The notes under the pieces are model-generated. The model was not told where the DNA came from. It saw only the letters and a program-made list of their open reading frames with translations, and did no database searches. This document shows positions 1-29,332 of a stretch of 64,000 nucleotides of DNA, one piece after another. Source of the stretch: Kaiparowitsia implicata GSE-PSE-MK54-09C (GTDB lineage: Bacteria; Cyanobacteriota; Cyanobacteriia; Elainellales; Elainellaceae); NCBI GenBank assembly GCA_019359435.1, contig JAHHHI010000064.1:1-64000 (forward strand), written 5' to 3'. A program made the translations under genes and the position numbers. How positions within the stretch are numbered: position 1 is the first letter of the stretch; each line of letters begins with the position of its first letter.

Positions 1-290
1 GCATCCACAACGAACTAGCCTTGCCATCTTCGCCACGCTGACGCTCGCTAAAATCCAGCTCGCCAACACGCTCATGCAGGGTGTGCTGGAACATATTCGT
101 CGCGGCCATCTGGTTGCCCAGGTACGCACCCACTTCCGGACGATAGATCGGCGTGCTCGGCTTACGCTGAGGCGGCTCAATCGGCTTGATCGGGTCTTGT
201 GGATCAACCGGACTTTCAGGATCGGTGGGCTCCTCAGGCTCAACCGGAGGCTCAACCACCGGCAACTCCGAGCGTAGGTACCAGTTGCCA
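1..290. repeat. Shared barrel/linker cassette, copy 1
   Basis: Positions 1-127 match 4250-4376 base for base. The match continues with scattered changes and a length difference in the proline-rich linker up to about 290 (4640 in copy 2), and protein-level similarity extends upstream past 500. The segment covers the start of the beta-barrel and the Pro-rich linker of two adjacent autotransporter genes on the same strand. Confidence 0.9.
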
Positions 291-2338
291 TCCGCGGCAT
301 AGCTCTTGCCGCCTTTATCCAGCAGGTACTCATTGGTGCCCGCGATAACGCGGTTAGCCAGTGAGAAGGTGCCGTTAGATTCACCGCCAACCTCAATCAG
401 CTCAATACCATTTGCGGCGGTGTGAGCCCCCCCCCCCCCCATGTTGTTGACCTGCACAAAAGTGTGGCCGTTGGTATCACCCAGTACCGTTAGCTTACTT
501 GAAGGCGAACTGTCATCACCAAGCACACTATCAAACACAAGTGTTCCGTTATTGCCAGTGTAACTCCCCCCAATGACCAGGGTTTCCATTGCTTCTGGTA
601 ATGAATATCCTTTATAGCTAAACGCTGGAGCACCTCCAATTTTCAGAAGTCCGCTATTAACCACATCCCCCCTTATATCCCCACTGGCGATCATTTGGCC
701 ACTTGAGAAAATATTGACATTGCCACCAAGACTTGTGTTACTCGTTAGAATCCCACCAAACACGTTTGTTGTGCCACTAAAAGAGCTACTAACTGCCTCC
801 AAAGTGGTAGATCCTGCAATAATATTGATAATTCCTGCCCCTTGAATTCGCGGGGAGAATATATAATCGTTATTGGTGTGATTGAAATTAAGCTCACTCG
901 TAGCGCTGACAAGATCAATGTACCCATCAATTATATAACCTGCACCGGAAGCGGCTTGCCCTTTCTCGGAGCCTATATTGATTGAACTCACAGCGCCATC
1001 TTCAGCGTATGTACCCACGCTGAACTGGTTTGCTTTAACCGTAGCCTCATCTGAAATGGTCAACACACCAGATTTTGTGCCAATCCCAATAAACATGGCT
1101 CCATAATCGAAAGCATTAAGATCAGTTGTTAAAGACGACCCTTTGCCTCGAACATGGACAACATCGCTACCAGAAAAATCAAAGGAAGTACCAATCTGCA
1201 CACCTGAGGTATTTACAGTTGATCCATCAGCGATAACCAGCGACCCTGAGCCATCCTTACCGACAGATAACTGGCCAGTATTGAAGATAGAGTTTCCAGA
1301 GACATGCATCGCACCTAACCCGAAGTCACCAATGGTCGTGGAGCCCTTAGAGTTGACGACCGCGTTGTCGGAAATACTAAACCTCCCTTCGCCTCGATAA
1401 CCTACACGAATATCGTTGGTCAGATTTATCGTTGACCCTGCTCCCAGCACTCCAACAGATCCTACTGAAGACGACCCAGAGGCAACGATCAAATGCTTTG
1501 CATTGACAACACCACCGTTGGTTACCGTCAGATGCCCGTCACCATCACGTCCGGCGTAAATACTTTGATTAACATTGAATGTAGAATTTTCGCCATCAAC
1601 ATTTACATAGCCTTTGCCAGTCAAGCCATTGCCAATGTACGCGTACGTTGTGCTAGCGGAACCACCTTCCGAGATATTCAGCGCACCACTATTGTCGCCT
1701 CCAGAATCATCAGAAGCGATATACATAACACCACTCACATCAAGCGTAGAGTCTTGCCCCTTGACGTTCACCGTGCTTTTGCTGTCACCCTTAAAGGAGA
1801 TTAGCAGGTCGGACGCGGCTGTGACGCCTGCACCGGCAACAATATCCAGTACACCACTTCCTTCAGTGCCCACAAATAAATTTCGATCAACATCGAGCCG
1901 CGAACCAGAACCAGACACTAAAACTGAGCCTTCGGAATTATGTTGCTTGCCGATAGTCAGACCTTCTGTGTATGCATCAATGTCAGTATTAACTTTTGCA
2001 CCATCAGTGATGACAAGATAACCAACTCCTGCCTCACCTACCACAATACGTCTTGAGCTATCCCATTTGGAGTCTGCACCTGATACAGCCATACTGCCCA
2101 TGCTTCCTTGAAGCAAGCCGAGAGTACCACCAACAGTATTCAGAACAGAACCCGAATCAACGAGTGCATCAGATGAGCTTGTTTGCCCAACAATCAAGGC
2201 ATCCGTATACGTCAGTTCTTTATCAGATGTTTCTATATTCTTATTCGCATCACCGTTAATCATTATATCTGAGTACACCGGAGATGATACAGCCAAACTC
2301 AATGAAGCAGCTATAAACGTTCTATTAAAAAAATTCAT
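1..2338 (-). CDS. Autotransporter adhesin A (type Va), 3' end beyond window
   Basis: I translated this frame from the ATG at 2338 and found it open to position 1, about 779 residues. It starts with a signal peptide (MNFFNRTFIAASLSLAVSS) ending near residue 24. The passenger (about 25-600) is made of short repeats rich in G, V, S and D with local patterns such as GSGVLDI and GYLVITDG, as expected of a beta-helix passenger. A Pro/Glu linker (VEPPVEPEEP) follows, then the first part of a barrel domain nearly identical to that of the gene at 3441-8861. The role is surface display or adhesion, inferred from the family. GAGAAAG lies just upstream of the ATG as a weak ribosome site. A run of 14 G sits in the coding strand right before the linker. 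No stop codon is visible because the gene leaves the window. Confidence 0.9.
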   Translation of the reverse strand, partial: MNFFNRTFIAASLSLAVSSPVYSDIMINGDANKNIETSDKELTYTDALIVGQTSSSDALVDSGSVLNTVGGTLGLLQGSMGSMAVSGADSKWDSSRRIVVGEAGVGYLVITDGAKVNTDIDAYTEGLTIGKQHNSEGSVLVSGSGSRLDVDRNLFVGTEGSGVLDIVAGAGVTAASDLLISFKGDSKSTVNVKGQDSTLDVSGVMYIASDDSGGDNSGALNISEGGSASTTYAYIGNGLTGKGYVNVDGENSTFNVNQSIYAGRDGDGHLTVTNGGVVNAKHLIVASGSSSVGSVGVLGAGSTINLTNDIRVGYRGEGRFSISDNAVVNSKGSTTIGDFGLGAMHVSGNSIFNTGQLSVGKDGSGSLVIADGSTVNTSGVQIGTSFDFSGSDVVHVRGKGSSLTTDLNAFDYGAMFIGIGTKSGVLTISDEATVKANQFSVGTYAEDGAVSSINIGSEKGQAASGAGYIIDGYIDLVSATSELNFNHTNNDYIFSPRIQGAGIINIIAGSTTLEAVSSSFSGTTNVFGGILTSNTSLGGNVNIFSSGQMIASGDIRGDVVNSGLLKIGGAPAFSYKGYSLPEAMETLVIGGSYTGNNGTLVFDSVLGDDSSPSSKLTVLGDTNGHTFVQVNNMGGGGAHTAANGIELIEVGGESNGTFSLANRVIAGTNEYLLDKGGKSYAADGNWYLRSELPVVEPPVEPEEPTDPESPVDPQDPIKPIEPPQRKPSTPIYRPEVGAYLGNQMAATNMFQHTLHERVGELDFSERQRGEDGKASSLWM
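427..440 (-). repeat. Poly-G (14) tract inside autotransporter A
   Basis: Fourteen consecutive C on the plus strand are 14 G in the coding strand. They encode the end of Met and four Gly codons, and the frame is kept with exactly 14. The equivalent point in the neighbouring paralogue reads GGCGGTAAAGGC, so the run is specific to this copy. A gain or loss of one base would end translation soon after, before the linker and barrel. Confidence 0.9.
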
Positions 2339-3440: not shown

Positions 3441-6400
3441 TTACCAGCTGAACTTAACCCCCAGCTGACCGCCCAGGGTGCGCTCATCGCCAGCCGCACT
3501 CTGCGAGCTCAAATGGCCCCAGGTGCTCCAGCCATTACCCACATCCACTTCCGCCCCCAGCTTCGCTTCGAAGACATCCTTGGCGCGGTTGAGCTTCAGC
3601 GTCGAGTCGTTGAATGCCATGGCGTTGTCGCCTTCGTTATGCCACCAGTTCGCTTCCACGAACGGCTGCACCCGGGTACCCGACTCATTCAAGGGACGGA
3701 TATAAGCGCGCGCGCCCAGACGGGTCGTCACACCACCGGCTTCCTTAGACTCAACCACCGTGCCGTTGTGCTCAACATGCTTGTCCGCATCGTACTCGCT
3801 GTAGATCACCTGGGCCTGCGGCTCGACGAAGTAAGCGCTGACGTCATCACGACCCACTTCAACCGCATAACCCGCTTCCAGCGACGCACTCCAAGTGCGG
3901 CTGTCGTAGCTCTCCTTCGTCAGGCCATCACCCTTCACGGTGTTCTTGTAGCGGCCATGCTGCAGCCAGGTATCGATGTACGGCCCAGTGCCTTCCTTAC
4001 CTGTCTGGTACCAAGTGCCGTATACGCCCACGCTATAGCCGTCTACTTCACCTTTGGCGCCGTACTGGGTCACATCCGATTTCACCTGGCTACGGGACTT
4101 GCCCTCACCCGCCATCACACCCACGTGGAAACGGTTGTCACCCTCACCCCAGCGCGCAATATCACCACCAATCTGCATCAGGTCTGTCGTGGTCGCCAGG
4201 TCGATCTGCTTCGAACCAGTGTCAGCTGTGAACTCGCTACGCTTGCCTCGCATCCACAACGAACTAGCCTTGCCATCTTCGCCACGCTGACGCTCGCTAA
4301 AATCCAGCTCGCCAACACGCTCATGCAGGGTGTGCTGGAACATATTCGTCGCGGCCATCTGGTTGCCCAGGTACGCCCCCACCTCCGGACGATAAATCGG
4401 CGCACTCGGCTTCCCCTGAGGCGGCTCGATCGGCTTGATCGGTTCTTCCGGATTGCTCGGGGCCTTCGGATCAACCGGGGTTTCCGGATCGATCGGATTC
4501 TTCGGATCAACCGGAGCTTCCGGCTCGTTCGGATCCTTCGGCTCAACCGGGGTTTCCGGATCGGTCGGCTCCTCAGGTTCAACCGGAGGCTCAACCACCG
4601 GCAACTCCGAGCGTAGGTACCAGTTGCCATCTGCGGCATAGCTCTTGCCGCCTTGTTCCAGCAGGTACTCGTTGGTACCGGCTACTACACGGCTAGCCAG
4701 GGTAAAGGTGCCATCCGATGCACCACCAACTTCGACCACCTCGATGCCATCGGCCGTGGTGTATGCGCCTTTACCGCCCGCATTGTTGACCTTCAAGAAG
4801 GTGGTGCCGGACGTATTGCCTTCTACCACCAGCTTGTCGGTGACGGAGTTGTCGTCGCCCAACACTGTATCCAGCTCAACCACGCCGTTAGCACCGACGA
4901 AGTCGCCCGACACCGTCAGCGCGGTACCCGCAATGCCATTGTCCAAGGTGACGCGGCCTGCGTTTGCCACGCTGCCCAGTACCGAGTGGCCGTCTTGCAG
5001 TGCAGCCAAAGTGCTGCTCGCATCGATGGCCAGCCAACCGGCCAGGTTGTTCGTGTCCAGGCTGGCGCTGCGCTTGGCAGCAGACGCACCACTGCTCAGT
5101 TGGAAGTCGCGCTCCAACGTCAGCGTCGTGCCATTGATCAGCTCAACACGCTCGAAGTTTTGAATCTGGTCTGTGTTCTGCGCCGTGGCTTGGTAGTCGT
5201 GCGCGTTAAACACCAGGGTGTCGAGCCCTGACGTACCTCCGAGCAACTGTCCGAAGCGCACATCGGCGCCCTGTACTTCAACCAGGTTGTCACCCTCGCC
5301 GGTGAAGAGCACACCATCCAGCTGGCTCGCGTCGGCAAGCAGTACGGTGCTGTCGCCATCACCCATGTTCACCGCACCGGTGATACGCCCGTCGCCCAGG
5401 TTGGCGAAGGTGCCTGCGCCTTCCAAGGACACGGCGGTCGCATCTGCACTGGCAGCCTGCAGCACGCCACGGTTGACCACGGTGTCGGCCTTGCCGCTGA
5501 CCAGCGTCGCTTCAGCATTGCTAGCGGTCAGGCGCGCTTCTTCAGAAAGCACCAGAACGCCCTTCTCGTGCGCACTTGCCACGGCGGTGCCGCTGCCGCT
5601 TACATTGACCTGGCTACCAATCACTGTGGTACCGGCGTTGTTGGTCGAGAAACCAGAGCCTTTACCGGTCACATCGACCAGCCACTCTTTACCAAAGGCC
5701 ACGATACGGTCGAGCATGCTGCGATCACTCTTCATCACCGCAATACCGGTACCCTCACCGCTGGAAATCACATGACCATGCGAGTCCTGGTGCAGGTTGT
5801 TTTCCGTCAGCAGTGCAGCACCCTTACCGGCCATCTCCAGCGTGGCACCGTCCACCAGGGTATTGCCGGCCACAGCCAGGTTAGTGATCAGGTTGCCAAG
5901 CGCTGAGCTGATGCCGGTGATCTTGGCATCTTTCTCGATCACCACCCGACCAGCATCAGCGCCCACCAGCACACCCGAGGCCGAACCATCGACGGTGATG
6001 TCGTCCATGGTGTTAAGCGTGGCACCCGCATGCACGTGAATACCGGCGATGCCGTGATGCACCGTGATCTTGCCGCGCTGACCATTGGCATCGGCCACCA
6101 TGCTCGAACCAATGCCGGCGATTTCAATCGCAGTACCGTGACTCAGCTCAATATCGCCGGCGTTGATCAGCTTGCCGCCATTGCGCACGGAAAAGGCCGT
6201 CACGTCCTTGGCATCCAGCACCTTCAAATCGGCGCTGTTGGTGAATGTCGACTGCGCGCTCGCCACCGCCTGGCCGCTGAGATCGTACTTGAGATTGTCG
6301 ACTACCACCGCCGTGGTGCCATCCTTGAGTGCGAGTTTGGCCGCACCGCTCATCTGGCCAGTCGCACCACCCTCGACTTTGACCGCCGTCGCGCCGTCGC

Positions 6401-9256: not shown

Positions 9257-10438
9257 TCAATCATCCAAATATGCCAAAAAATTTTCGTAAGTCAGTGGCT
9301 CCGAATAATAGAAGCCTTGAACAATACAACCACCGATATTTCGCACCACCTCCAGCTGCACCTCATCTGCAACCCCTTCGACGACAACATCGAGACCCAA
9401 CTCCCTTCCTAAAAAAGCAACGCTCTTTATAATGGAAGCGCTCCAGGGCCTGAAGTTTATATTTTCAATAAAAATAGCATCTAATTTTATTTCATTAAAA
9501 GGAAGCTCCGCCAAGCGACTTAAAGATGAATAGCCCGCACCGAAATCATCCATTGCGATGCCAACTCCCATCAAGCGCAGCCTCACCAAGTTTTCCAAAG
9601 TAGTAGCTGGCGCCGTCAAAAATCCTGTTTCCGTTAGCTCAAGTTTTACTTCACGCGCGGGTACCCGATACATCCTCAACATCTCTCTTACCTCCGCCGG
9701 AAAGGAAGGAGAAGATATCGTCGATGCAGTTACATTAACGGATATTTCCATACTGTTTTTTACAGAAGAGCAACTATTCTTAAACTGGCAAACCTTCTCA
9801 AAAACTGACCAAAATAAGCAATCTGAAATACCTTCACGCTCCACGGCAGTCAAAAACTCTTTTACACCTAGCAACCCTCTTTCAGGGTGCAACCAACGAG
9901 CCAAGGCCTCAGCCCCAACGATCTCCCCCGTTTCAACTTTAATTTTAGGCTGAAAGAGTGGAATAAATTCGCCAGCCTTCAACGCTCTTTTAAGCTCTTG
10001 TCGATCTGGCAACTCAACCAAATCGAGAAGTGCAGGAAAATGGCTTAACCGTGATTCAGTACCATAACTTCCAATCATCTCTCTAAGCCGCTCGACTTCA
10101 ACAGGCTTGCTAAGGTCACCAAGAAACTCTAATCCGAGGTGGCGAATCATTGTTATGATTCCTTGCCGCATAGAGACATGTATCGCCGAGCTTAGTACCA
10201 CCGCTTTAACAAGGCCCGCATTGGCTGCTTTCCTCAAAAAGCGTAGCCCGTCCTCGCCCGGCATTGTGATGTCGCAGATGACTATATCTACACCTCCTGC
10301 TTGCTTCACAGCATTGAAGGCCTGCCCTCCCTCCGTTGCAGTTAGAACAGATGACGCCCCACATGACTTAACGGCTGATGCAGTAGCGGCCAACTGCAAA
10401 GGGTGATCTTCTAGAATCAAAATTTTTATTGAGTTCAT
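9257..10438 (-). CDS. rocR: RocR-like response regulator with EAL phosphodiesterase domain
   Basis: 393 residues from the ATG at 10438, which has GGAGG seven bases upstream; the frame extends further but without such a site. Residues 1-125 are a receiver with acidic pair ED at 10-11, phospho-acceptor D56 (VICDITMP) and K near 107 (DLSKP). Residues about 150-390 are an EAL domain with EALARW, the metal-binding loop DDFGAGYSS, catalytic-type IKLD and VVEGV, so it should hydrolyse c-di-GMP. Length and sequence closely resemble P. aeruginosa RocR (SadR), including D56 and the ETGxxxAPxxxLENLVRLR stretch. It is divergent from a RocA1-like regulator and close to a RocS1-like kinase. In P. aeruginosa this system controls cup fimbriae and biofilm maturation; the same output here is inference. 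Confidence 0.88.
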   Translation of the reverse strand: MNSIKILILEDHPLQLAATASAVKSCGASSVLTATEGGQAFNAVKQAGGVDIVICDITMPGEDGLRFLRKAANAGLVKAVVLSSAIHVSMRQGIITMIRHLGLEFLGDLSKPVEVERLREMIGSYGTESRLSHFPALLDLVELPDRQELKRALKAGEFIPLFQPKIKVETGEIVGAEALARWLHPERGLLGVKEFLTAVEREGISDCLFWSVFEKVCQFKNSCSSVKNSMEISVNVTASTISSPSFPAEVREMLRMYRVPAREVKLELTETGFLTAPATTLENLVRLRLMGVGIAMDDFGAGYSSLSRLAELPFNEIKLDAIFIENINFRPWSASIIKSVAFLGRELGLDVVVEGVADEVQLEVVRNIGGCIVQGFYYSEPLTYENFLAYLDD

Positions 10439-10573
10439 AAACCACCTCCATAAGTGTTTACAAACTTTATCATCCACCGCTTCAGCATTATCGCGGAACC
10501 AGCCCAAATGTACGTGGGAATTTTCCCAGGCACTATGGTTCAATTGCTACAGCCTGAGCTACACTAGTAAAAT

Positions 10574-10582
10574 CCCCCCCCC
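10574..10582. repeat. Poly-C (9) tract in rocR/rocA intergenic region
   Basis: Nine C in the 165-base gap between the divergent rocR-like and rocA-like genes, about 20 bases before the ATG of rocA. A length change here could alter the untranslated leader or promoter spacing. Confidence 0.85.
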
Positions 10583-10603
10583 GACCGGCGAGATTTATAA
10601 AGC

Positions 10604-11230
10604 ATGAGTACTATCCTGATAGTTGATGACCATCCAGTTATTAGAATCGCCGTGAAGGCCGTACTAGAAAAACAAGGACATAAGGTTATCGCTGAAAGCG
10701 ACAATGGCGTTGACTGTATACAGCAGTCCCGCGAACTTTCCCCAGAACTTATTATCCTAGATATAGGCATTCCGATGCTCGATGGCCTAGAGGTCATAAG
10801 CCGAGTAAAGACGTTTAATAGCAATATCAAGATAATTGTTTTCACATCTCAACAGGCAACTCTTTTTGCGCCCCGCTGTTTAAAGGCCGGAGCATCAGGT
10901 TTTGTCACAAAAGGGGGGGCGATGGAGGAGCTTGTACGAGGAGTAAGGACAGTCCTTGACGGCTATTCATTTTTTCCTTCAAGCACGATGAACAGCGCTT
11001 ATCCAGAACGAACAACCAATTCAGACCAAGCACTTATCAAGTCTTTGTCAGATAGAGAGCTCGTTGTACTTACGCACTTAGCTGCAGGTTTATCAAACAA
11101 AGAAATTTCTGAGATCTTACTCTTGAGCAACAAAACCATCAGCACCTATAAAACAAGAATAATGGAAAAGCTTAACTTAAGTAACCTATTAGAAATATGT
11201 GATTTTGCCAGAAGAAACAAAATAAGCTAA
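10604..11230 (+). CDS. rocA1: RocA1-like response regulator (receiver + LuxR HTH)
   Basis: 208 residues. The receiver has DD at 8-9, phospho-acceptor D53 (IILDIGIP), T near 85 (VFTSQQ) and K near 105 (VTKGG). The C-terminal part (about 145-205) is a LuxR/NarL helix-turn-helix with LSDRELVVLTHLAAGLSNKE and KTISTYKTRI. Domain order and length match RocA1 of the P. aeruginosa Roc/Sad system and BvgA-type regulators. It is divergent from the EAL regulator and convergent with the kinase. The likely phosphodonor is the HPt domain of the kinase at 11275-14874. Targets cannot be read from this window; autotransporter promoters nearby are possible but unproven. No strong ribosome site precedes the ATG. 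Confidence 0.87.
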   Translation: MSTILIVDDHPVIRIAVKAVLEKQGHKVIAESDNGVDCIQQSRELSPELIILDIGIPMLDGLEVISRVKTFNSNIKIIVFTSQQATLFAPRCLKAGASGFVTKGGAMEELVRGVRTVLDGYSFFPSSTMNSAYPERTTNSDQALIKSLSDRELVVLTHLAAGLSNKEISEILLLSNKTISTYKTRIMEKLNLSNLLEICDFARRNKIS

Positions 11231-11252
11231 AAGCTAAAAGCTAAAAGCTAAA
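11225..11252. repeat. AGCTAAA heptamer x4 over the rocA stop codon
   Basis: Four perfect copies of AGCTAAA, plus a partial fifth. The first copy contains the TAA stop of the rocA-like gene. The array separates the convergent rocA- and rocS-like genes and is not an obvious terminator. Confidence 0.9.
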
Positions 11253-11274
11253 AGCGGAGGTTCGTCACGGAAAA

Positions 11275-14200
11275 TTATTTACCCAACACATCCGCTGACA
11301 TGATCTGCTCAAACTCCGCTAGCATTGACACAAGCTTATTGATTGATGCTTCAAGCTCAGAGCTGATAGCCAAACTAGACAACCTCTCTATTTTTTCACA
11401 TTTCGCTACTATTTTTCCTGCGCTAACTAGCTTCATCCCCCCTTTAATTCTATGTGCGATAGATGAAATTTCAACAAGGTCCCCCGAAGCCAACGCCTCT
11501 TTCATCGCTAAGCTGTCTTCATAATTACTTTTGAACAGCTCTGTTAGCAGCAATCTAGTCAGCGCCGCATCCTCACCAGCAATTTTCCTTACCTCGCCAA
11601 GATCATAAGAAAAAACCACTGCTGCATCCCGACTGGCTGAGGAGCTATACCCAGCAATTACACGCTTTAGTTCTCCGAGAGTAATCGGCTTAAACAAGCA
11701 TTCATTCATACCAATCTTGAGGCACCTCTCGCGCTCTTCAATCTGAGCATTCGCTGTATATCCGATTATCGGTACTTTACCTTCCGTGCGCTGGCGTTCG
11801 GACAGTCTGATTTGTTCTGTTAACTTATAACCATCCATAATCGGCATCTGACAATCCGTTATCACCATGTCAAAACTATGGCTACTACATAGCTCTAGCG
11901 CCTGAGCCCCATCTCCGGCTTCTACAACCTGGTGCCCTAAAAAACTTAACTGCTGCGAAAGTAAAAGCCTATTGGCGGGGTGGTCATCAACTAAAAGTAT
12001 CTTTTTCACATCGTCGTTAATAGAAACGTGCTCATCAAGTCTTACGCGATCTACAGACTCTTGGTAATTTCTTTTAGCTTCAACTAGCGGTAGTTTTGCA
12101 ATGGCAACAACACCACCACCCTCTCTACTTAATATTTTTAAATCCCCCCCCATCATTTCACAAAGCACGTTACATATCTTAAGCCCCAGCCCAGTACCTG
12201 CTCTTTTATCGGCCTGCGCCCCTTGAACAAACGGCTCAAAAATTCTTTCTAAATCAATGTCGGAAATCCCAACTCCGGTATCGCGGACTTCAATCAATGC
12301 AAGTAACTCACCGCCCTCGATATCAGCCACCCTTAAGTGCAAGCTAACACCGCCTTGATCCGTAAATTTAATAGCATTTCCAACTAGATTTGAAATTACC
12401 TGCCTTACTCTAACCGAATCAAATAAGTACTCATCATTTAGCTTTTCATCAGCCTCAAATGCAAGCAACAATCCTTTCTGCTTTGCCAGACCTGAAAAAA
12501 CATTAACAACAGAGCTAGCAACTTTGACTAAATTCGCAGGCTGGCGGCTAATCTCGATTCGACCCGATTCGATTCTTGACATATCCAGCACATCCCCTAT
12601 CAAGTCTAAAAGCTCACTTGCAGAAGAAAATGCTATTTTAACCCCATCAATATAGAATTCTCCTAGCTCATAACGAGCAATTACCAACTCCAACATACCT
12701 ATAACTGCATTCAGTGGTGTACGAATTTCATGACTCATCGTAGCCAAGAAAGTAGTCTTTGCCTTATTCGCACTCATGGCTTGCTCTTTAGCAAATGCCA
12801 TCTCTTTGATTAGCTCCTGCTTATCAGTAACATCTATCCAGCCACATATCGTCCCTTTTATATTACCCCCAGCAGTAGTGTATGGTCTTGCCCAGTGATA
12901 TAGTGTATAGAATGTACCTTTATACTTAATTTCCTTATCGCCTTCCGCTCCACTGAGCAGCGAGTCACCTGACAGTTGATATTCCAAAAACTCTCTAAAA
13001 AGCTTATTGAGCAGTGATAGCTCGCCAGGGATATCTATATCACCACTCACTCTTGCAGAAATAAGAAAAACAGCAAAAGAAGCGTTATATCCAGCTAACT
13101 CCCCTTGCGCATCGCAAAAATAAACAGGATGCGGGATACTGTCTAACATATCCCGTATGAAAGCCAGTTTATCACCCAACTCTTGCTCTGCTTTCTTTCT
13201 ATGAACTATCTGCCTCTTAAGATATTGAACCCATATAAATGCCAAAGACAAAAGCACAGCAGCAAGTAAAGTAAACTCAATTATAATAGCGCGATAGTCA
13301 TACCAGGTCTTAACTCTCTCCGCGCTATTTGAGCGCCATCGAGTAGCGACAATATTAAGCTCATCAGGAGGAATAACTGCTAATATTTTATCCAAAATCG
13401 ACTGCAATTCCACATTTCGCTTTGAAATTCCAAAAGCAAAACTAGCCGGCACATAGTCTAAAACACCAGCAATCTTTAAATCATCCCCGTCTTGCCGCGC
13501 CAAGTAGTACTGAACTACACTAATTGCAGCAATAGCGCAGTCAGCCTGACCACTTCGCACCAGCTCTAGAGCCTCATTAAACGTATAAGAATTTTTTATA
13601 CGATTTTTTTGACTTACGCTATTTAAATAGCTTAACAACACATGCCCTTTAGGCATCGCGATTACGCCCTGGTTCAATCGACACCCTAGCGGGTCTTCAC
13701 TCCTAGACACCAGTGCGAAAGGCTTTTTTAAAAATTCTCTTGTAAAGAGTATCTCTTTTTTCCGCTCCTCACTTTCTGATAGCACAACTATATCTGCACC
13801 ATCACCCCTTACCTCTACAAGCAAATCGTTCAATTTATTTGCACTGCCAGCATCTACCCTGATGCCGGTCCTTAACGTAAATAGCTTCATTACATCCGCA
13901 GCAACACCGCTAAAATTCTGATCTTTATCAATAAAAGCGACAGGTGCTTGATCACCGCTAACAAGGAATCGAATACTACTAGTTCTAGATACCCACTCCT
14001 TCTCTGATTCAGTGAGTTTGATATTTAAGACCTTCAAAAACCCTATACCACCACTCCATCTTTTGATGATTCCTTCACGCACATCAGAATTGACACTAGA
14101 GATAACCTCATCGATAGCCTTCAAAAAACCAACATGCTCTTTATTTATAACAAATGCCGCCCCGTAGCCTTCTCCCGAAAGAACTTTATCCACTTTAACA

Positions 14201-14874
14201 TAGTTAAAATAACTGCTATTGATCAGGCTGTTTGTTGAAATTAACTCCCCGACAGCAACATCGACCTCTCCAAACGAGAGCGCAGCTAAAGCTCGCTCAT
14301 TTGTGCTGTAGATAGCTGGGTCGCTTAAAGAAATACCTTCCAACCCGTTTCTAGCATTATATAAATCCTCAGGAAAACCTATCTTTACACCACGATAATC
14401 GACAGCCATATTTCTTGAATCATTTATTCGCCTAAACACAGCAACTTGTGACGACACATATTTCTTACTATAAGAAAAACCATCTTCTTTAGGCGGCAGC
14501 CATCCTTGAACACTAATTGCATCTATTTTTTTTTCTGTTAACGCCTGCTTTGCCGTAACAGCATCAGGATAGACTCTTATCACTGGCTCTAATAAAAGTG
14601 CCGAGGCAACAATCTGAATCATATCCGAGGCAATACCCTCATACCCTCGCCCGGGTCGAATCATGCTGTAGGGCGGATTATCATTAGCCAAAACGCCTAT
14701 ATATAACTTTCTATCCCCTCCCTGAGTAGACATACGATCATCTATAGGGATGAGCCCAATCGCGCCTGCATCTGAAAGTGCTAGCCTTATAGACTCTGCT
14801 TTGGAATATCCCGTAGACGTAAAAAAAACCAAAAATAACACTAATATCGGCTTCACAAATATCGAGCTACTCAT
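11275..14874 (-). CDS. rocS1: RocS1/BvgS-like unorthodox hybrid sensor kinase
   Basis: About 1199 residues from the ATG at 14874 (AGGTGAG upstream; farther upstream only TTG/GTG starts exist). Signal peptide, then two periplasmic bacterial solute-binding (SBP_bac_3) domains at about 55-270 and 295-510. A membrane span lies at about 529-553, a PAS-like region at 570-690, and HisKA with H715 in TMSHEIRTPL. The ATPase domain has N833 region (NLVGNAIKF) and DTGVGIS/GTGLGL boxes, a receiver follows with D1007 (ITDCQMP), and an HPt domain ends it with H1141 (IAHRIKGG). This is the layout of RocS1 and BvgS: the periplasmic domains sense a ligand and phosphate runs H-D-H to the response regulators. 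The gene directly downstream of a small receiver-like gene on the same strand. Confidence 0.9.
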   Translation of the reverse strand: MSSSIFVKPILVLFLVFFTSTGYSKAESIRLALSDAGAIGLIPIDDRMSTQGGDRKLYIGVLANDNPPYSMIRPGRGYEGIASDMIQIVASALLLEPVIRVYPDAVTAKQALTEKKIDAISVQGWLPPKEDGFSYSKKYVSSQVAVFRRINDSRNMAVDYRGVKIGFPEDLYNARNGLEGISLSDPAIYSTNERALAALSFGEVDVAVGELISTNSLINSSYFNYVKVDKVLSGEGYGAAFVINKEHVGFLKAIDEVISSVNSDVREGIIKRWSGGIGFLKVLNIKLTESEKEWVSRTSSIRFLVSGDQAPVAFIDKDQNFSGVAADVMKLFTLRTGIRVDAGSANKLNDLLVEVRGDGADIVVLSESEERKKEILFTREFLKKPFALVSRSEDPLGCRLNQGVIAMPKGHVLLSYLNSVSQKNRIKNSYTFNEALELVRSGQADCAIAAISVVQYYLARQDGDDLKIAGVLDYVPASFAFGISKRNVELQSILDKILAVIPPDELNIVATRWRSNSAERVKTWYDYRAIIIEFTLLAAVLLSLAFIWVQYLKRQIVHRKKAEQELGDKLAFIRDMLDSIPHPVYFCDAQGELAGYNASFAVFLISARVSGDIDIPGELSLLNKLFREFLEYQLSGDSLLSGAEGDKEIKYKGTFYTLYHWARPYTTAGGNIKGTICGWIDVTDKQELIKEMAFAKEQAMSANKAKTTFLATMSHEIRTPLNAVIGMLELVIARYELGEFYIDGVKIAFSSASELLDLIGDVLDMSRIESGRIEISRQPANLVKVASSVVNVFSGLAKQKGLLLAFEADEKLNDEYLFDSVRVRQVISNLVGNAIKFTDQGGVSLHLRVADIEGGELLALIEVRDTGVGISDIDLERIFEPFVQGAQADKRAGTGLGLKICNVLCEMMGGDLKILSREGGGVVAIAKLPLVEAKRNYQESVDRVRLDEHVSINDDVKKILLVDDHPANRLLLSQQLSFLGHQVVEAGDGAQALELCSSHSFDMVITDCQMPIMDGYKLTEQIRLSERQRTEGKVPIIGYTANAQIEERERCLKIGMNECLFKPITLGELKRVIAGYSSSASRDAAVVFSYDLGEVRKIAGEDAALTRLLLTELFKSNYEDSLAMKEALASGDLVEISSIAHRIKGGMKLVSAGKIVAKCEKIERLSSLAISSELEASINKLVSMLAEFEQIMSADVLGK

Positions 14875-14924
14875 CAGATACTCACCTATAGCATTCACCA
14901 AATATATAGCTTTATCGATAATCC

Positions 14925-25272: not shown

Positions 25273-25445
25273 CTTGTCTTCCTTGACCGGGAGCTCCTGC
25301 TCCCAGCCATCCGTGCTGCTTTAGTTACTCCTTACCGCCTGAAGCCACAAGGCTGCGTAGTCTTGGGCATCACCCTTCACGATGTTCTTGTAGCAGCCGT
25401 ACTGAAGGCAAGCGTCGATGTACGGACCAGTGTCTTCTTTACAGC
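25273..25445 (-). pseudogene. Relic of an autotransporter 3' end (barrel fragment)
   Basis: The DNA at about 25283-25320 matches the end of autotransporter B (compare 3396-3440, CCAGCCATCCGTGCTG). Further on, 25366-25440 (GCATCACCCTTCACG, TTCTTGTAGC, CGATGTACGG) matches 3926-4000 in the barrel coding region. The roughly 500 bases between are missing, so it is an internally deleted, non-functional remnant. It lies directly before the CapA-like gene at 25491 on the same strand. Confidence 0.8.
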
Positions 25446-25490
25446 CCGGGCCCACCCTACCAGTGGAGCGGTAAACAATGGTGCGCAGCC

Positions 25491-27140
25491 CTAATGATCC
25501 ACGGGCCGCTGAGGTAAGCTTGAAAGAGGAGACAGGATTTCATTCCACACCCTGTCACGCAAATGTGGAAGCTGACTCTTCTCAAGTTCGGTTAGGCCGT
25601 AATCGTCCGGATTCTCTAAGACATCGTAGAACTTGACGATTCGGCAGTTGAAACTTCCGCCGCCAAGATCCTGGTTAACAATATAAATCGGCAATGCTTC
25701 GAGACCACATAATACCCTACCGTTCGTGACCGATTCTGTTGCTGTAACCTTCGCAATTTTGAATTTTATAATGTAGGAAAGCTTCGAGTTTCGACTTTCC
25801 GGATGATAACTAACAAAATCGCCGAAACTGTAGACGACTAACGCGTCCTGCTTGCCTGGGCGCGCAATAAGCTCCGAGGGCTGACTAACATGCGCATGGT
25901 TACCTAAAATGGTATCGACACCGCATGCAATAATTTTCTGGGCTGCCTCGCGAATATTGGTATGTGGATACATCTCAAACTCCCACCCCCAGTGGCAGTA
26001 AGCGATGATCCAGTCTGCGCCTTTGGCTTTGGCTGCCGCGACCTGCCTCTCGATCATCGAGTAATCGGGGGCGGGATTGACGTCGTTAAATCGTACTTCG
26101 TTGGCAAGATACGACTTACCTGGGGGCGCTGCATAGCCGTTAAGATCCATTGTGAACGCCAACAAAGCAATGCACAGGCCATTCGCCTGAATGAAACGTA
26201 TTGCTAAATCTTGGCTGGACTGACTTGGCGCAGTCCCAGAGTAAACCGCCCCTGAATCGTTTAGTACACTAAGTGTGGCGAGAATACCTTCCTCACCCCA
26301 GTCCATCGCATGATTCGTTGCGGTACTAAAAAAATTTATCTTAGCTTCTGAGCGAAATTTTTGGAACATCGCCTCAGATGTATTCATTTTAGCAGGGGCT
26401 CCCAGCGCTTGAGTACGCCCCAAAGGGCTGCTCTTATCAACGGTCGTCTCTAAATTAGCGCTAACGATATCAGCGCTGCTATAGAAGTCGACAATATCGT
26501 CGAACAAGTGCTCTGTATTTTTCGGTGTCAAAACATCGACCGCAAGTAGGTCTCCCGCACATGATATAGAGACACTAGTGAAGTTATGCGGAACCTCACT
26601 GAGCTTACTAAGGTCCTGAGATGCGAATAAAGCTTCCAACCCCGAGCCTTTTTCAGCTACTTCAAGCTGATTGAACCAATAGCGGTAAAGCCATTTTAAT
26701 TTTTCAAATGGATTATTCGCAATATCATAGACGCCTGTTTCTGGTTGCGGATAATGGAACTCATCATAAAAAATATAGCTAACCAGCAAAACTACTAGCC
26801 TAGCCAGGGTACGCTTATCGATATCGTTAGCTGCGAAAGGAAGCTTTATCGCGGACTCAGATTCGCCGAAAATTTTATCGAGCGCTAACTCTCCACTAAA
26901 TTTACCCGGTTCGTTCAACACAGGTTGAATCTTTGCCAAGATGTTTAGCAACCCAACTTTCGTAACCCAACCGAAAACCTCTCGTGCGTGCTCTTTCTCA
27001 TCAGAGCTAAGCGTCTCACACAGCTCCAACTCACCAATCGCTACACGCTCAAGTGTAGCAACCACTTCATACCCATGTTTATCAAGGTAAATTTTTAGAA
27101 TTAACATTAATTCTTTTAGCTGCATTAAATATTCTTTCAT
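25491..27140 (-). CDS. CapA-like metallophosphatase-fold protein 1
   Basis: 549 residues from the ATG at 27140 (aligned with the start of the paralogue at 27722-29332). The C-terminal two thirds is a CapA (poly-gamma-glutamate synthesis, calcineurin-like) domain with ISCAGDLLAVD, SANLETTVD, NHAMDWGEEG, CHWGWEFEMY, LGNHAHVSQPS and YSFGDFVSYHP, all expected metal-site motifs. The first 180 residues are helical and acidic without recognised domain, and no signal peptide or membrane helix is visible, unlike membrane-bound CapA. Substrate unknown. No capB/capC partners lie nearby. It is followed by the autotransporter relic and terminator. The frame extends upstream but without support. Confidence 0.8.
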   Translation of the reverse strand: MKEYLMQLKELMLILKIYLDKHGYEVVATLERVAIGELELCETLSSDEKEHAREVFGWVTKVGLLNILAKIQPVLNEPGKFSGELALDKIFGESESAIKLPFAANDIDKRTLARLVVLLVSYIFYDEFHYPQPETGVYDIANNPFEKLKWLYRYWFNQLEVAEKGSGLEALFASQDLSKLSEVPHNFTSVSISCAGDLLAVDVLTPKNTEHLFDDIVDFYSSADIVSANLETTVDKSSPLGRTQALGAPAKMNTSEAMFQKFRSEAKINFFSTATNHAMDWGEEGILATLSVLNDSGAVYSGTAPSQSSQDLAIRFIQANGLCIALLAFTMDLNGYAAPPGKSYLANEVRFNDVNPAPDYSMIERQVAAAKAKGADWIIAYCHWGWEFEMYPHTNIREAAQKIIACGVDTILGNHAHVSQPSELIARPGKQDALVVYSFGDFVSYHPESRNSKLSYIIKFKIAKVTATESVTNGRVLCGLEALPIYIVNQDLGGGSFNCRIVKFYDVLENPDDYGLTELEKSQLPHLRDRVWNEILSPLSSLPQRPVDH

Positions 27141-27721: not shown

Positions 27722-29332
27722 TTAAGACTTTGTAAGCAGCGGGTTCAAACTTGAAAGTGGAGACAAAATCGCTCCCCAAACATTATCACGTAAATGGTTA
27801 AGTTGGCTTTTCTCTATATCAGTAAGTCCATAGCCATCCCGGTTACCTAAGACATCACTAAACGGCACAATACGGCAGTTGTAACCCCCCCCCCCTAAAT
27901 GCTGGTTCACTATGTAAACAGGCATTGCTTTTAGGCCACTCACCCCGATTTCTGCAGAAGAACCGCTGCCGCTTTTATAGACTTCAAATTTTACTATGTA
28001 AGAGAGCTTTGAATTGCGACTGCTGGGGTGAAAGCTAACGAAGTCACCGAAGCTATAAATAACCAATTTACCATTAATGATCTCCGAAGGCTGACTTACG
28101 TGTGCATGGTTACCAAGGATAGTGTCAACTCCTAGGTCAATAATCTCCCTTGCTGCGTCGCGAATACTGCTATGAGGGTACATTTCAAATTCCCAGCCCC
28201 AGTGGCAATAAGCGATGATCCAGTCTGCGCCTAGCTCTTTCGCAGTATTCACCTGACTCTGAATCAGGCTGTAATCGCGCGCTGTTGCGGGAACGTCATT
28301 GAACCGTACCTCATTAGCAAGGTACGGTTTAGTTGGAGGTGTCGCATAGTCATTAAGGTCCATAGTGAATGATAATAACGCGATCTTGATGCCATTTATT
28401 TCGCGAATCACCACCTTACTCTGACCTGTTTGGTCTTTAGCCGTGCCTGCGTAGTCCACGTTATATTTGTTGATAACATCAATTGTGGCTTCAACACCAA
28501 TTTCACCCCAGTCCATTGAGTGGTTTGTTGCTGTGCTAAAGAAATTTATCCCTGCCTCCGAGCAGAATTTCTTGAACATATCCTCAGTCGTGTTCATTTG
28601 TGCAGGCTTGCCTTGGTTTATTTTACGCCCTGGCTGCCCACCTGCGTAAACAGTTGACTCTAGGTTGGCACTCACTATATCAACACCGCTGCTATAAAAA
28701 TCAGCGATATCATTAAACAGGCGGTCTGTGTTACCCGTTAGCAGCGCGTCAACTGCAAGTAAATCGCCTGCGCACGTAATAGTGGCAACGGAAGACCCAA
28801 GTGGCGCAACTCTAGCAAGGCCACTCAAATTTTGCTCTTTAAAATACTTCTCCATCCCCGACCCTCTCTCAGCAACTTCCAGTTGATTAAGTTGGAGACG
28901 GTAAGCCCACTTCATTTTTTCAAATGGGTCATTCGATATATCGTATTTTCCTGTTGCTGGCTGCGGGTAATGAAAATCCTCATAGAAAAAATAGCTCATC
29001 AGCATAAGCACCTCCTGCGGCGTAAGCTGCTCATTCGCGAGCGGTAGCTTTGCCTTACCGCTTGGTTTTCCTGAAGTATTGCCAAGCACTACTTTTCTGA
29101 GTGTCGATTGCAAGGACTCCGGCAACCCTGTTTCTAATACCGCTTCACAAATTTTCCGAAACCGCTCGGCCTCCTCATCAGTCACCGTCTCGACCAGCTC
29201 CAGCTCACCACTTACTACGCTCTCAAGGGTGGCGATAACTTCATCTGGATGTTCCTTAAGACGAGCCCTGAGTATCTCAATAATCTCTTGTATTTCTGGG
29301 ATTATATGCTCTGGTATATCAAAGTTTTTCAT
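27722..29332 (-). CDS. CapA-like metallophosphatase-fold protein 2
   Basis: 536 residues, paralogue of the 25491 gene along the whole length. CapA motifs: GD at 189-190, NLE at 223-225, NHSMD at 270-274, HWGWE at 377-381, GNHAH at 407-411 and SFGDFVS. An N-terminal helical region (about 1-180) without recognised domain, no signal peptide or membrane segment. The stretch of four Gly codons near 480-483 is written as a run of 11 G, in frame, while the paralogue has GGCGGCGG-type codons there. Slippage would remove the last roughly 55 residues, after the metal sites. Function unknown; a role in polymer or cell-surface metabolism is only an analogy to CapA. Confidence 0.8.
   Translation of the reverse strand: MKNFDIPEHIIPEIQEIIEILRARLKEHPDEVIATLESVVSGELELVETVTDEEAERFRKICEAVLETGLPESLQSTLRKVVLGNTSGKPSGKAKLPLANEQLTPQEVLMLMSYFFYEDFHYPQPATGKYDISNDPFEKMKWAYRLQLNQLEVAERGSGMEKYFKEQNLSGLARVAPLGSSVATITCAGDLLAVDALLTGNTDRLFNDIADFYSSGVDIVSANLESTVYAGGQPGRKINQGKPAQMNTTEDMFKKFCSEAGINFFSTATNHSMDWGEIGVEATIDVINKYNVDYAGTAKDQTGQSKVVIREINGIKIALLSFTMDLNDYATPPTKPYLANEVRFNDVPATARDYSLIQSQVNTAKELGADWIIAYCHWGWEFEMYPHSSIRDAAREIIDLGVDTILGNHAHVSQPSEIINGKLVIYSFGDFVSFHPSSRNSKLSYIVKFEVYKSGSGSSAEIGVSGLKAMPVYIVNQHLGGGGYNCRIVPFSDVLGNRDGYGLTDIEKSQLNHLRDNVWGAILSPLSSLNPLLTKS
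27885..27895 (-). repeat. Poly-G (11) tract inside CapA-like 2
   Basis: Eleven C on the plus strand, 11 G in the coding strand, in frame over Gly codons 480-483. The paralogue uses mixed Gly codons at the same position, so the homopolymer is not needed for the protein sequence. Confidence 0.88.

What the first reader, a model, noticed from the sequence alone, without database searches (positions are those of the whole stretch)
427..440. Poly-G(14) switch at the passenger/barrel junction of an autotransporter
The coding strand of autotransporter A has 14 G in a row, in frame, exactly before the linker and beta-barrel. The adjacent paralogue encodes nearly the same peptide here with mixed codons. 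A change of one base would stop translation before the barrel, so the adhesin would not be inserted or displayed. This is the architecture expected of slipped-strand phase variation, but this particular gene was not known to me as phase-variable.
Basis: partly seen in the sequence, partly recalled or inferred. Interest (0 to 1): 0.78.

Follow-up and report, generated by a model that had tools for sequence, protein, structure and literature searches.

The report
Poly-G tract in Pseudomonas autotransporter
A Pseudomonas surface-adhesin-like gene carries 14 Gs in a row inside its coding sequence, so gaining or losing one G would cut the protein off before its membrane anchor; this is probably a slippage-prone on/off switch of a kind already known in Bordetella, Campylobacter and Bartonella, but no length change has been seen yet.

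Summary
Window 427-440 is 14 C on the + strand, i.e. G14 in the coding strand of ORF A, a classical (type Va) autotransporter. It reads ATG-GGG-GGG-GGG-GGG-GCT. A shift of +1 or -1 ends translation 8-12 codons later; G11, G14 and G17 stay open. Correction: the tract lies inside the autochaperone domain (AC_1, PF18883), in its conserved NxGGxGAxT motif, about 55 residues before the Pro-rich linker, not exactly at the junction. The window starts at a contig end inside the barrel.

The host assembly is cyanobacterial; this contig is a Pseudomonas contaminant. No relative examined, including paralogue B, has a G run longer than 7 near this motif. In 398 Pseudomonadaceae genomes G>=12 runs are rare. 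Of about 97 inspected, about four lie deep in convincing genes, one of them another autotransporter (L149/L219). The same contig holds a second in-frame tract (G11) in one of two tandem PGA_cap paralogues.

Best reading: a contingency locus switching by slipped-strand mispairing. Coding G tracts in autotransporters are already known (Bordetella tcfA and bapC, Campylobacter capD). New member of a known kind; length variation is untested.

The parts
427..440 (-). G14 homopolymeric tract (coding strand), encoding M-G-G-G-G-A in the NxGGxGAxT motif of the autochaperone domain
1..2338 (-). ORF A: autotransporter gene, ATG at 2338, cut by the contig start inside the barrel; ends in a 204-bp stretch 95% identical to B whose last ~115 bp are identical
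2264..2338 (-). Probable Sec signal peptide of ORF A (MNFFNRTFIAASLSLAVSSPVYS-)
   Evidence: read directly from the sequence; no signal-peptide predictor run
600..2128 (-). Passenger of ORF A with six T5SS/PEP-CTERM-associated repeats (TIGR04393); limits approximate
320..595 (-). AC_1 autochaperone domain type 1 (PF18883), E=3e-25; related to solved AIDA-I 4MEE and IcsA 3ML3
155..277 (-). Pro/Glu-rich linker before the barrel
1..154 (-). Start of the autotransporter beta-barrel (rest beyond the contig end; probable 3' end on contig C68:12568-13032)
3441..8861 (-). ORF B: paralogous 1806-aa autotransporter (ESPR, AC_1, Pertactin, full barrel)
4758..4784 (-). Equivalent motif in ORF B (NNAGGKGAYT), mixed codons, no tract
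27885..27895 (-). Second in-frame poly-G (G11) in PGA_cap gene 27722-29332; tandem paralogue 25491-27140 has GGC GGC GGA AGT here; a +-1 shift replaces the last ~53 residues by a short tail

Best explanation
ORF A is a type Va autotransporter of a Pseudomonas, and its G14 tract makes it a contingency (phase-variable) gene. Inferred mechanism: slipped-strand mispairing during replication adds or removes G. At 14 G (or 11, or 17) the frame is open and passenger, autochaperone and barrel are made, so the adhesin is displayed. At other lengths translation stops 8-12 codons after the tract; the cell makes a signal peptide plus about 640 residues without a complete autochaperone or any barrel, which can at most reach the periplasm and should be degraded. 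Shown: the tract, its frame, the stops, the domains, the mixed codons elsewhere. Inferred: slippage rate, switching, surface phenotype. G14 gives exactly the motif length seen in relatives, so this assembly is in the ON state.
For: Tract and stops. Chance expectation 2.7e-4 per 64 kb; one of two G>=12 runs in the assembly. 250 of 398 Pseudomonadaceae genomes have no G>=12 run at all. Of about 97 runs inspected, nearly all are intergenic or in unconvincing frames, about four are deep in convincing genes, and one of those is a 1697-aa autotransporter with G12 in frame (L149/L219). No relative examined, including paralogue B, has a G run >7 near the motif, so the peptide does not require the tract. 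A second gene on the contig shows the same pattern: G11 in one of two tandem paralogues. G tracts of about 8-13 in Bordetella tcfA and bapC vary within single cultures (PMC1891110).
Against: No direct evidence of length polymorphism: one assembled sequence, no reads, no orthologue. The set of in-gene G>=12 runs in the survey is small and was judged by eye. A run of conserved glycines makes this a place where a tract can arise by drift. Tract length in a draft assembly may be off by one or more, although 14 is in frame.
Confidence: 0.68

Rival explanations
1. Neutral accident: the glycine-rich motif drifted into a long G run (GGG codons plus slippage expansion), and it mutates as any long run does, but switching has no adaptive role.
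For: The motif NxGGxGA already asks for three glycines. Several other G/C runs of 7-11 lie on this contig, which might point to a general slippage bias or weak mismatch repair. GGG makes up 19% of ORF A's glycine codons, the tract included.
Against: G>=12 runs deep inside genes are almost absent from the family, and none of the relatives read has a run >7 near this motif.
Confidence: 0.24
2. The tract acts on expression in another way: RNA polymerase or ribosome slippage, or a G-quadruplex in mRNA or DNA that slows translation at the autochaperone, giving a mixture of full and truncated protein from one genotype.
For: G14 could form G-rich structures; the position, between passenger and barrel, is where a pause might matter. 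No direct evidence.
Against: In frame at the DNA level, so no slippage is needed for full-length product; relatives make the same domain without any such element.
Confidence: 0.05
3. Artefact: the tract or its length was created by sequencing or assembly (poly-G errors are common in some short-read chemistries).
For: Draft assembly with contaminant contigs. Some genomes in the survey carry artefact-like poly-G clusters at contig ends, and this tract is only 427 bp from a contig end.
Against: The flanks on both sides read as one continuous AC_1 domain in frame with the motif length conserved. The contig end is explained by DNA identical between A and B, and there is only one tract here, not a cluster.
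Confidence: 0.03

Closest known systems
Bordetella pertussis tcfA and bapC (coding G tracts in autotransporters; PMC1891110)
   Same: Poly-G inside the open frame of a classical autotransporter; indels truncate the protein; tract length varies within single cultures. A BvgS-like kinase lies near the genes here as well.
   Different: Other genus. The bapC tract is near the 5' end per the paper; here the tract is late, in the autochaperone. Variation not shown here.
Campylobacter capD autotransporters (PMC7168839)
   Same: Homopolymeric G tract within the coding sequence of an autotransporter family.
   Different: Different genus and family; capC tracts are upstream of the gene, and the authors found capC tract length unrelated to intact/inactive status.
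Bartonella badE (trimeric autotransporter) and a C11-bearing autotransporter barrel protein (PMC11466379)
   Same: Mononucleotide repeats in autotransporter reading frames; badE tracts changed in evolution experiments.
   Different: badE is type Vc and its repeats are in the first portion of the frame.
Pseudomonas putida flhB poly-G frameshifts (Segura et al. 2004, cited in PMC2831843)
   Same: Frameshifting in a coding poly-G tract in the same genus, so Pseudomonas can use such a switch.
   Different: Flagellar export gene, 5' tract, not an autotransporter. Known to me only through the citing paper.
AIDA-I (4MEE) and IcsA (3ML3) autochaperone domains
   Same: Sequence-level homologues of the domain that carries the tract.
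   Different: In the aligned chains the motif differs (VNEDGSGGQT, VTNEGGSGDKT), and no tract is known to me in these genes; their DNA was not examined.

Membership tests
Simple-sequence contingency locus (slipped-strand phase variation) | Pure repeat tract long enough to slip (about 8 or more G/C) | tested here: met
   G14
Simple-sequence contingency locus (slipped-strand phase variation) | Indels switch the reading frame or promoter | tested here: met
   +-1/2 give stops after 8-12 codons; G11/14/17 open
Simple-sequence contingency locus (slipped-strand phase variation) | Tract not required by the protein sequence and rare elsewhere in genes | tested here: met
   Paralogue and relatives use mixed codons; survey
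Simple-sequence contingency locus (slipped-strand phase variation) | Length polymorphism between or within strains | not testable with these tools
   No reads; no orthologue in the assembly's own family or in 398 Pseudomonadaceae genomes
Simple-sequence contingency locus (slipped-strand phase variation) | ON/OFF phenotype that tracks tract length | not testable with these tools
   Needs bench work
Type Va autotransporter | Autochaperone / passenger repeats | tested here: met
   PF18883 E=3e-25; TIGR04393 x6
Type Va autotransporter | C-terminal beta-barrel | tested here: inconclusive
   ORF A is cut by the contig end; TIGR01414 matches residues 585-781; the last ~115 bp are identical to the complete barrel gene B; probable 3' end on C68
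Type Va autotransporter | N-terminal Sec signal peptide | not tested
   Looks typical by eye; no predictor available

The most novel reading that the evidence does not exclude
This Pseudomonas lineage runs a small set of G-tract contingency genes for its surface: autotransporter A (G14), a tandem PGA_cap gene (G11), and possibly the neighbouring BvgS/EvgS-like regulatory cluster (C9 in the divergent upstream region, G8 in the kinase). For the two gene pairs one paralogue is switchable and the other fixed. The autochaperone glycine motif would be an unusual, late switching point that leaves an unanchored passenger in the OFF state.
Probability: 0.2. Interest if true: 0.6.

Novelty: new member of a known kind. 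Interest (0 to 1): 0.42.

Why it matters
Coding G-tract switching of autotransporters is known mainly from host-adapted bacteria (Bordetella, Campylobacter, Bartonella). A case in a Pseudomonas found with a cyanobacterium would suggest that adhesin bet-hedging is used outside animal hosts. The paired arrangement (one paralogue with a tract, one without) gives an internal control that makes the idea easy to test.

Tried and rejected
Looking for variants in relatives: the own genus holds one genome and the own (cyanobacterial) family none with ORF A, because the contig is a Pseudomonas contaminant; genome contigs gave only a distant Gilliamella hit. I reached Pseudomonadaceae through G036 and G198 and found no orthologue. 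The TerC gene was a poor probe for this. A 16S search in G000 found nothing. Viral-contig pattern scan: no match. Plasmid autotransporters in the best rows are at most ~37% identical. I checked whether the G11 gene 27722-29332 is frameshifted (OFF): it is in frame. I considered the G17 run on C67 as a second phase-variable gene: it lies in an intergenic stretch by the ORF list apart from a 100-aa mechanical ORF. A promoter scan upstream of ORF A gave no more than shuffles. No structure prediction was run, since loss of the barrel on frameshift needs none.

Full report
Observation. Window 427-440 is 14 C on the + strand, i.e. 14 G in the coding strand of ORF A, which starts at ATG 2338 on the minus strand and runs off the window start. 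The tract is codons ATG-GGG-GGG-GGG-GGG-GCT: the first G belongs to Met and the last to Ala. Translating with 10-18 G shows the frame open at 11, 14 and 17 only; at the other lengths a stop follows within 8-12 codons. Under a first-order model of the window 2.7e-4 G/C runs of 14 or more are expected. In the whole 6.7-Mb assembly only one other run of 12 or more exists, on contig C67, in a stretch between the convincing genes.

Where it lies. Pfam places PF18883 (AC_1, autochaperone type 1) at residues 584-675 of the ORF A protein, and the tract falls in the middle of it, at the motif NxGGxGAxT. The related solved structures are AIDA-I (4MEE) and IcsA (3ML3). The Pro-rich linker begins about 55 residues later and the barrel follows. 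ORF A also carries six T5SS repeats (TIGR04393).

Source of the DNA. The window is the start of contig C69. The assembly is a cyanobacterium: contig C70 encodes a protein I recognise as the phycobilisome linker ApcE. C69 and C68 are a Pseudomonas contaminant: most plasmid-record matches to the C69 end are Pseudomonas (15 of 19), a TerC-like gene is 89.8% identical to a Pseudomonas plasmid, C68's IS element matches Pseudomonas, and C69 carries an arrangement I read as dusA-tal whose best match in a gammaproteobacterial sample is syntenic in G198. That G198 belongs to Pseudomonadaceae is my inference. C69 begins inside the barrel because the last ~115 bp there are identical to paralogue B. The probable remainder of ORF A is at C68:12568-13032; this join is inferred.

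Is the tract required by the protein? No. Paralogue B encodes NNAGGKGAYT with GCG GGC GGT AAA GGC GCA. In the relatives read at this motif the longest G run anywhere near it is 7 and the motif itself is coded with mixed codons. ORF A's peptide (NNMGGGGAHT) has the same length as these, which suggests that 14 G is the ON state.

How unusual is it? A search of 398 genomes of the family of G198 found G>=12 runs in 148 and none in 250, with most positive genomes holding one or two; a few outliers hold many, mostly poly-G clusters at contig ends that look like artefacts. I inspected about 97 runs in their context. Almost all were intergenic, at the edges of open frames or in unconvincing frames. 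By my reading, deep in-gene cases were about four: a 1697-aa autotransporter with ESPR, PATR repeats and barrel (L149/L219, G12 in frame), an RTX-repeat protein (L189), a LysR-type regulator (L143, below Pfam's cut-off) and an unassigned large protein with an ATP-binding-like motif (L207). So long G runs are rarely found inside genes here, and an autotransporter appears again in a very small set; the sample is too small for a firm enrichment claim.

A second case on the same contig. ORF 27722-29332 (PGA_cap, PF09587) has G11 in frame at LGGGGYNC, near its 3' end; its tandem paralogue 25491-27140 has LGGGSFNC with GGC GGC GGA AGT. Indels of one or two bases replace the last ~53 residues by a short tail, leaving proteins of 490-495 instead of 536 residues.

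Mechanism. The best-supported reading is slipped-strand switching: ON at 11/14/17 G gives a complete adhesin; OFF gives a passenger fragment without the end of the autochaperone and without the barrel. Steps shown: tract, frames, stops, domains, rarity. Steps inferred: slippage, surface phenotype, benefit. The chief rival is a neutral run in a glycine-rich motif. An assembly artefact is unlikely because the flanks are in frame and homologous on both sides.

What is known. Coding homopolymeric G tracts in autotransporters are described for Bordetella pertussis tcfA and bapC, with within-culture variation (PMC1891110), for Campylobacter capD (PMC7168839), and mononucleotide repeats for Bartonella badE and a C11 autotransporter (PMC11466379). 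For Pseudomonas, a poly-G frameshift in P. putida flhB is cited (PMC2831843), and indels in intergenic homopolymers are reported in P. aeruginosa (PMC8115180). In the library searched I found no report of a G-tract autotransporter in Pseudomonas; the library is partial. The finding is a new member of a known kind, with the late, autochaperone-located position as its own feature.

Noticed in passing
window 27885-27895 (ORF 27722-29332, minus): Second in-frame poly-G (G11) in a PGA_cap (capsule-synthesis-like) gene whose tandem paralogue has mixed glycine codons at the same place.
   Followed up: yes
window 9257-14901: BvgS/EvgS-like hybrid kinase (SBP_bac_3, HisKA, receiver, Hpt), EAL response regulator and LuxR-type response regulator next to the autotransporters. 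Runs: C9 at 10574-10582 upstream of the LuxR-type regulator (divergent region), G8 at 12144-12151 in the kinase, T8 and A9 in its 5' part.
   Followed up: partly
G726:C1:1437729 (L149/L219): Another Pseudomonadaceae autotransporter (1697 aa) with an in-frame G12 in its passenger (ISGGGGLTFAG).
   Followed up: partly
L189, L143, L207: Other in-gene G12-G14 runs in Pseudomonadaceae: RTX-repeat protein, LysR-type regulator, and a large protein with an ATP-binding-like motif.
   Followed up: partly
L081 and L082 (C69:84001-124000): trb-like conjugation genes, then an integrase-like gene beside dusA: looks like an integrative conjugative element; gene names are from reading, not from a family search.
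   Followed up: no
window 25366-25536 (minus) and C69:80157-80339: Fragments resembling the autotransporter barrel, the second with stops: probable remnants of further copies.
   Followed up: no
G000:C67:8832-8848: G17 run about 110 bp upstream of a histidine-kinase gene, on another contig of the assembly (GC ~0.6, possibly another contaminant).
   Followed up: no
whole assembly G000: Cyanobacterial draft with contaminant contigs (at least C68 and C69 from Pseudomonas); no 16S found.
   Followed up: partly
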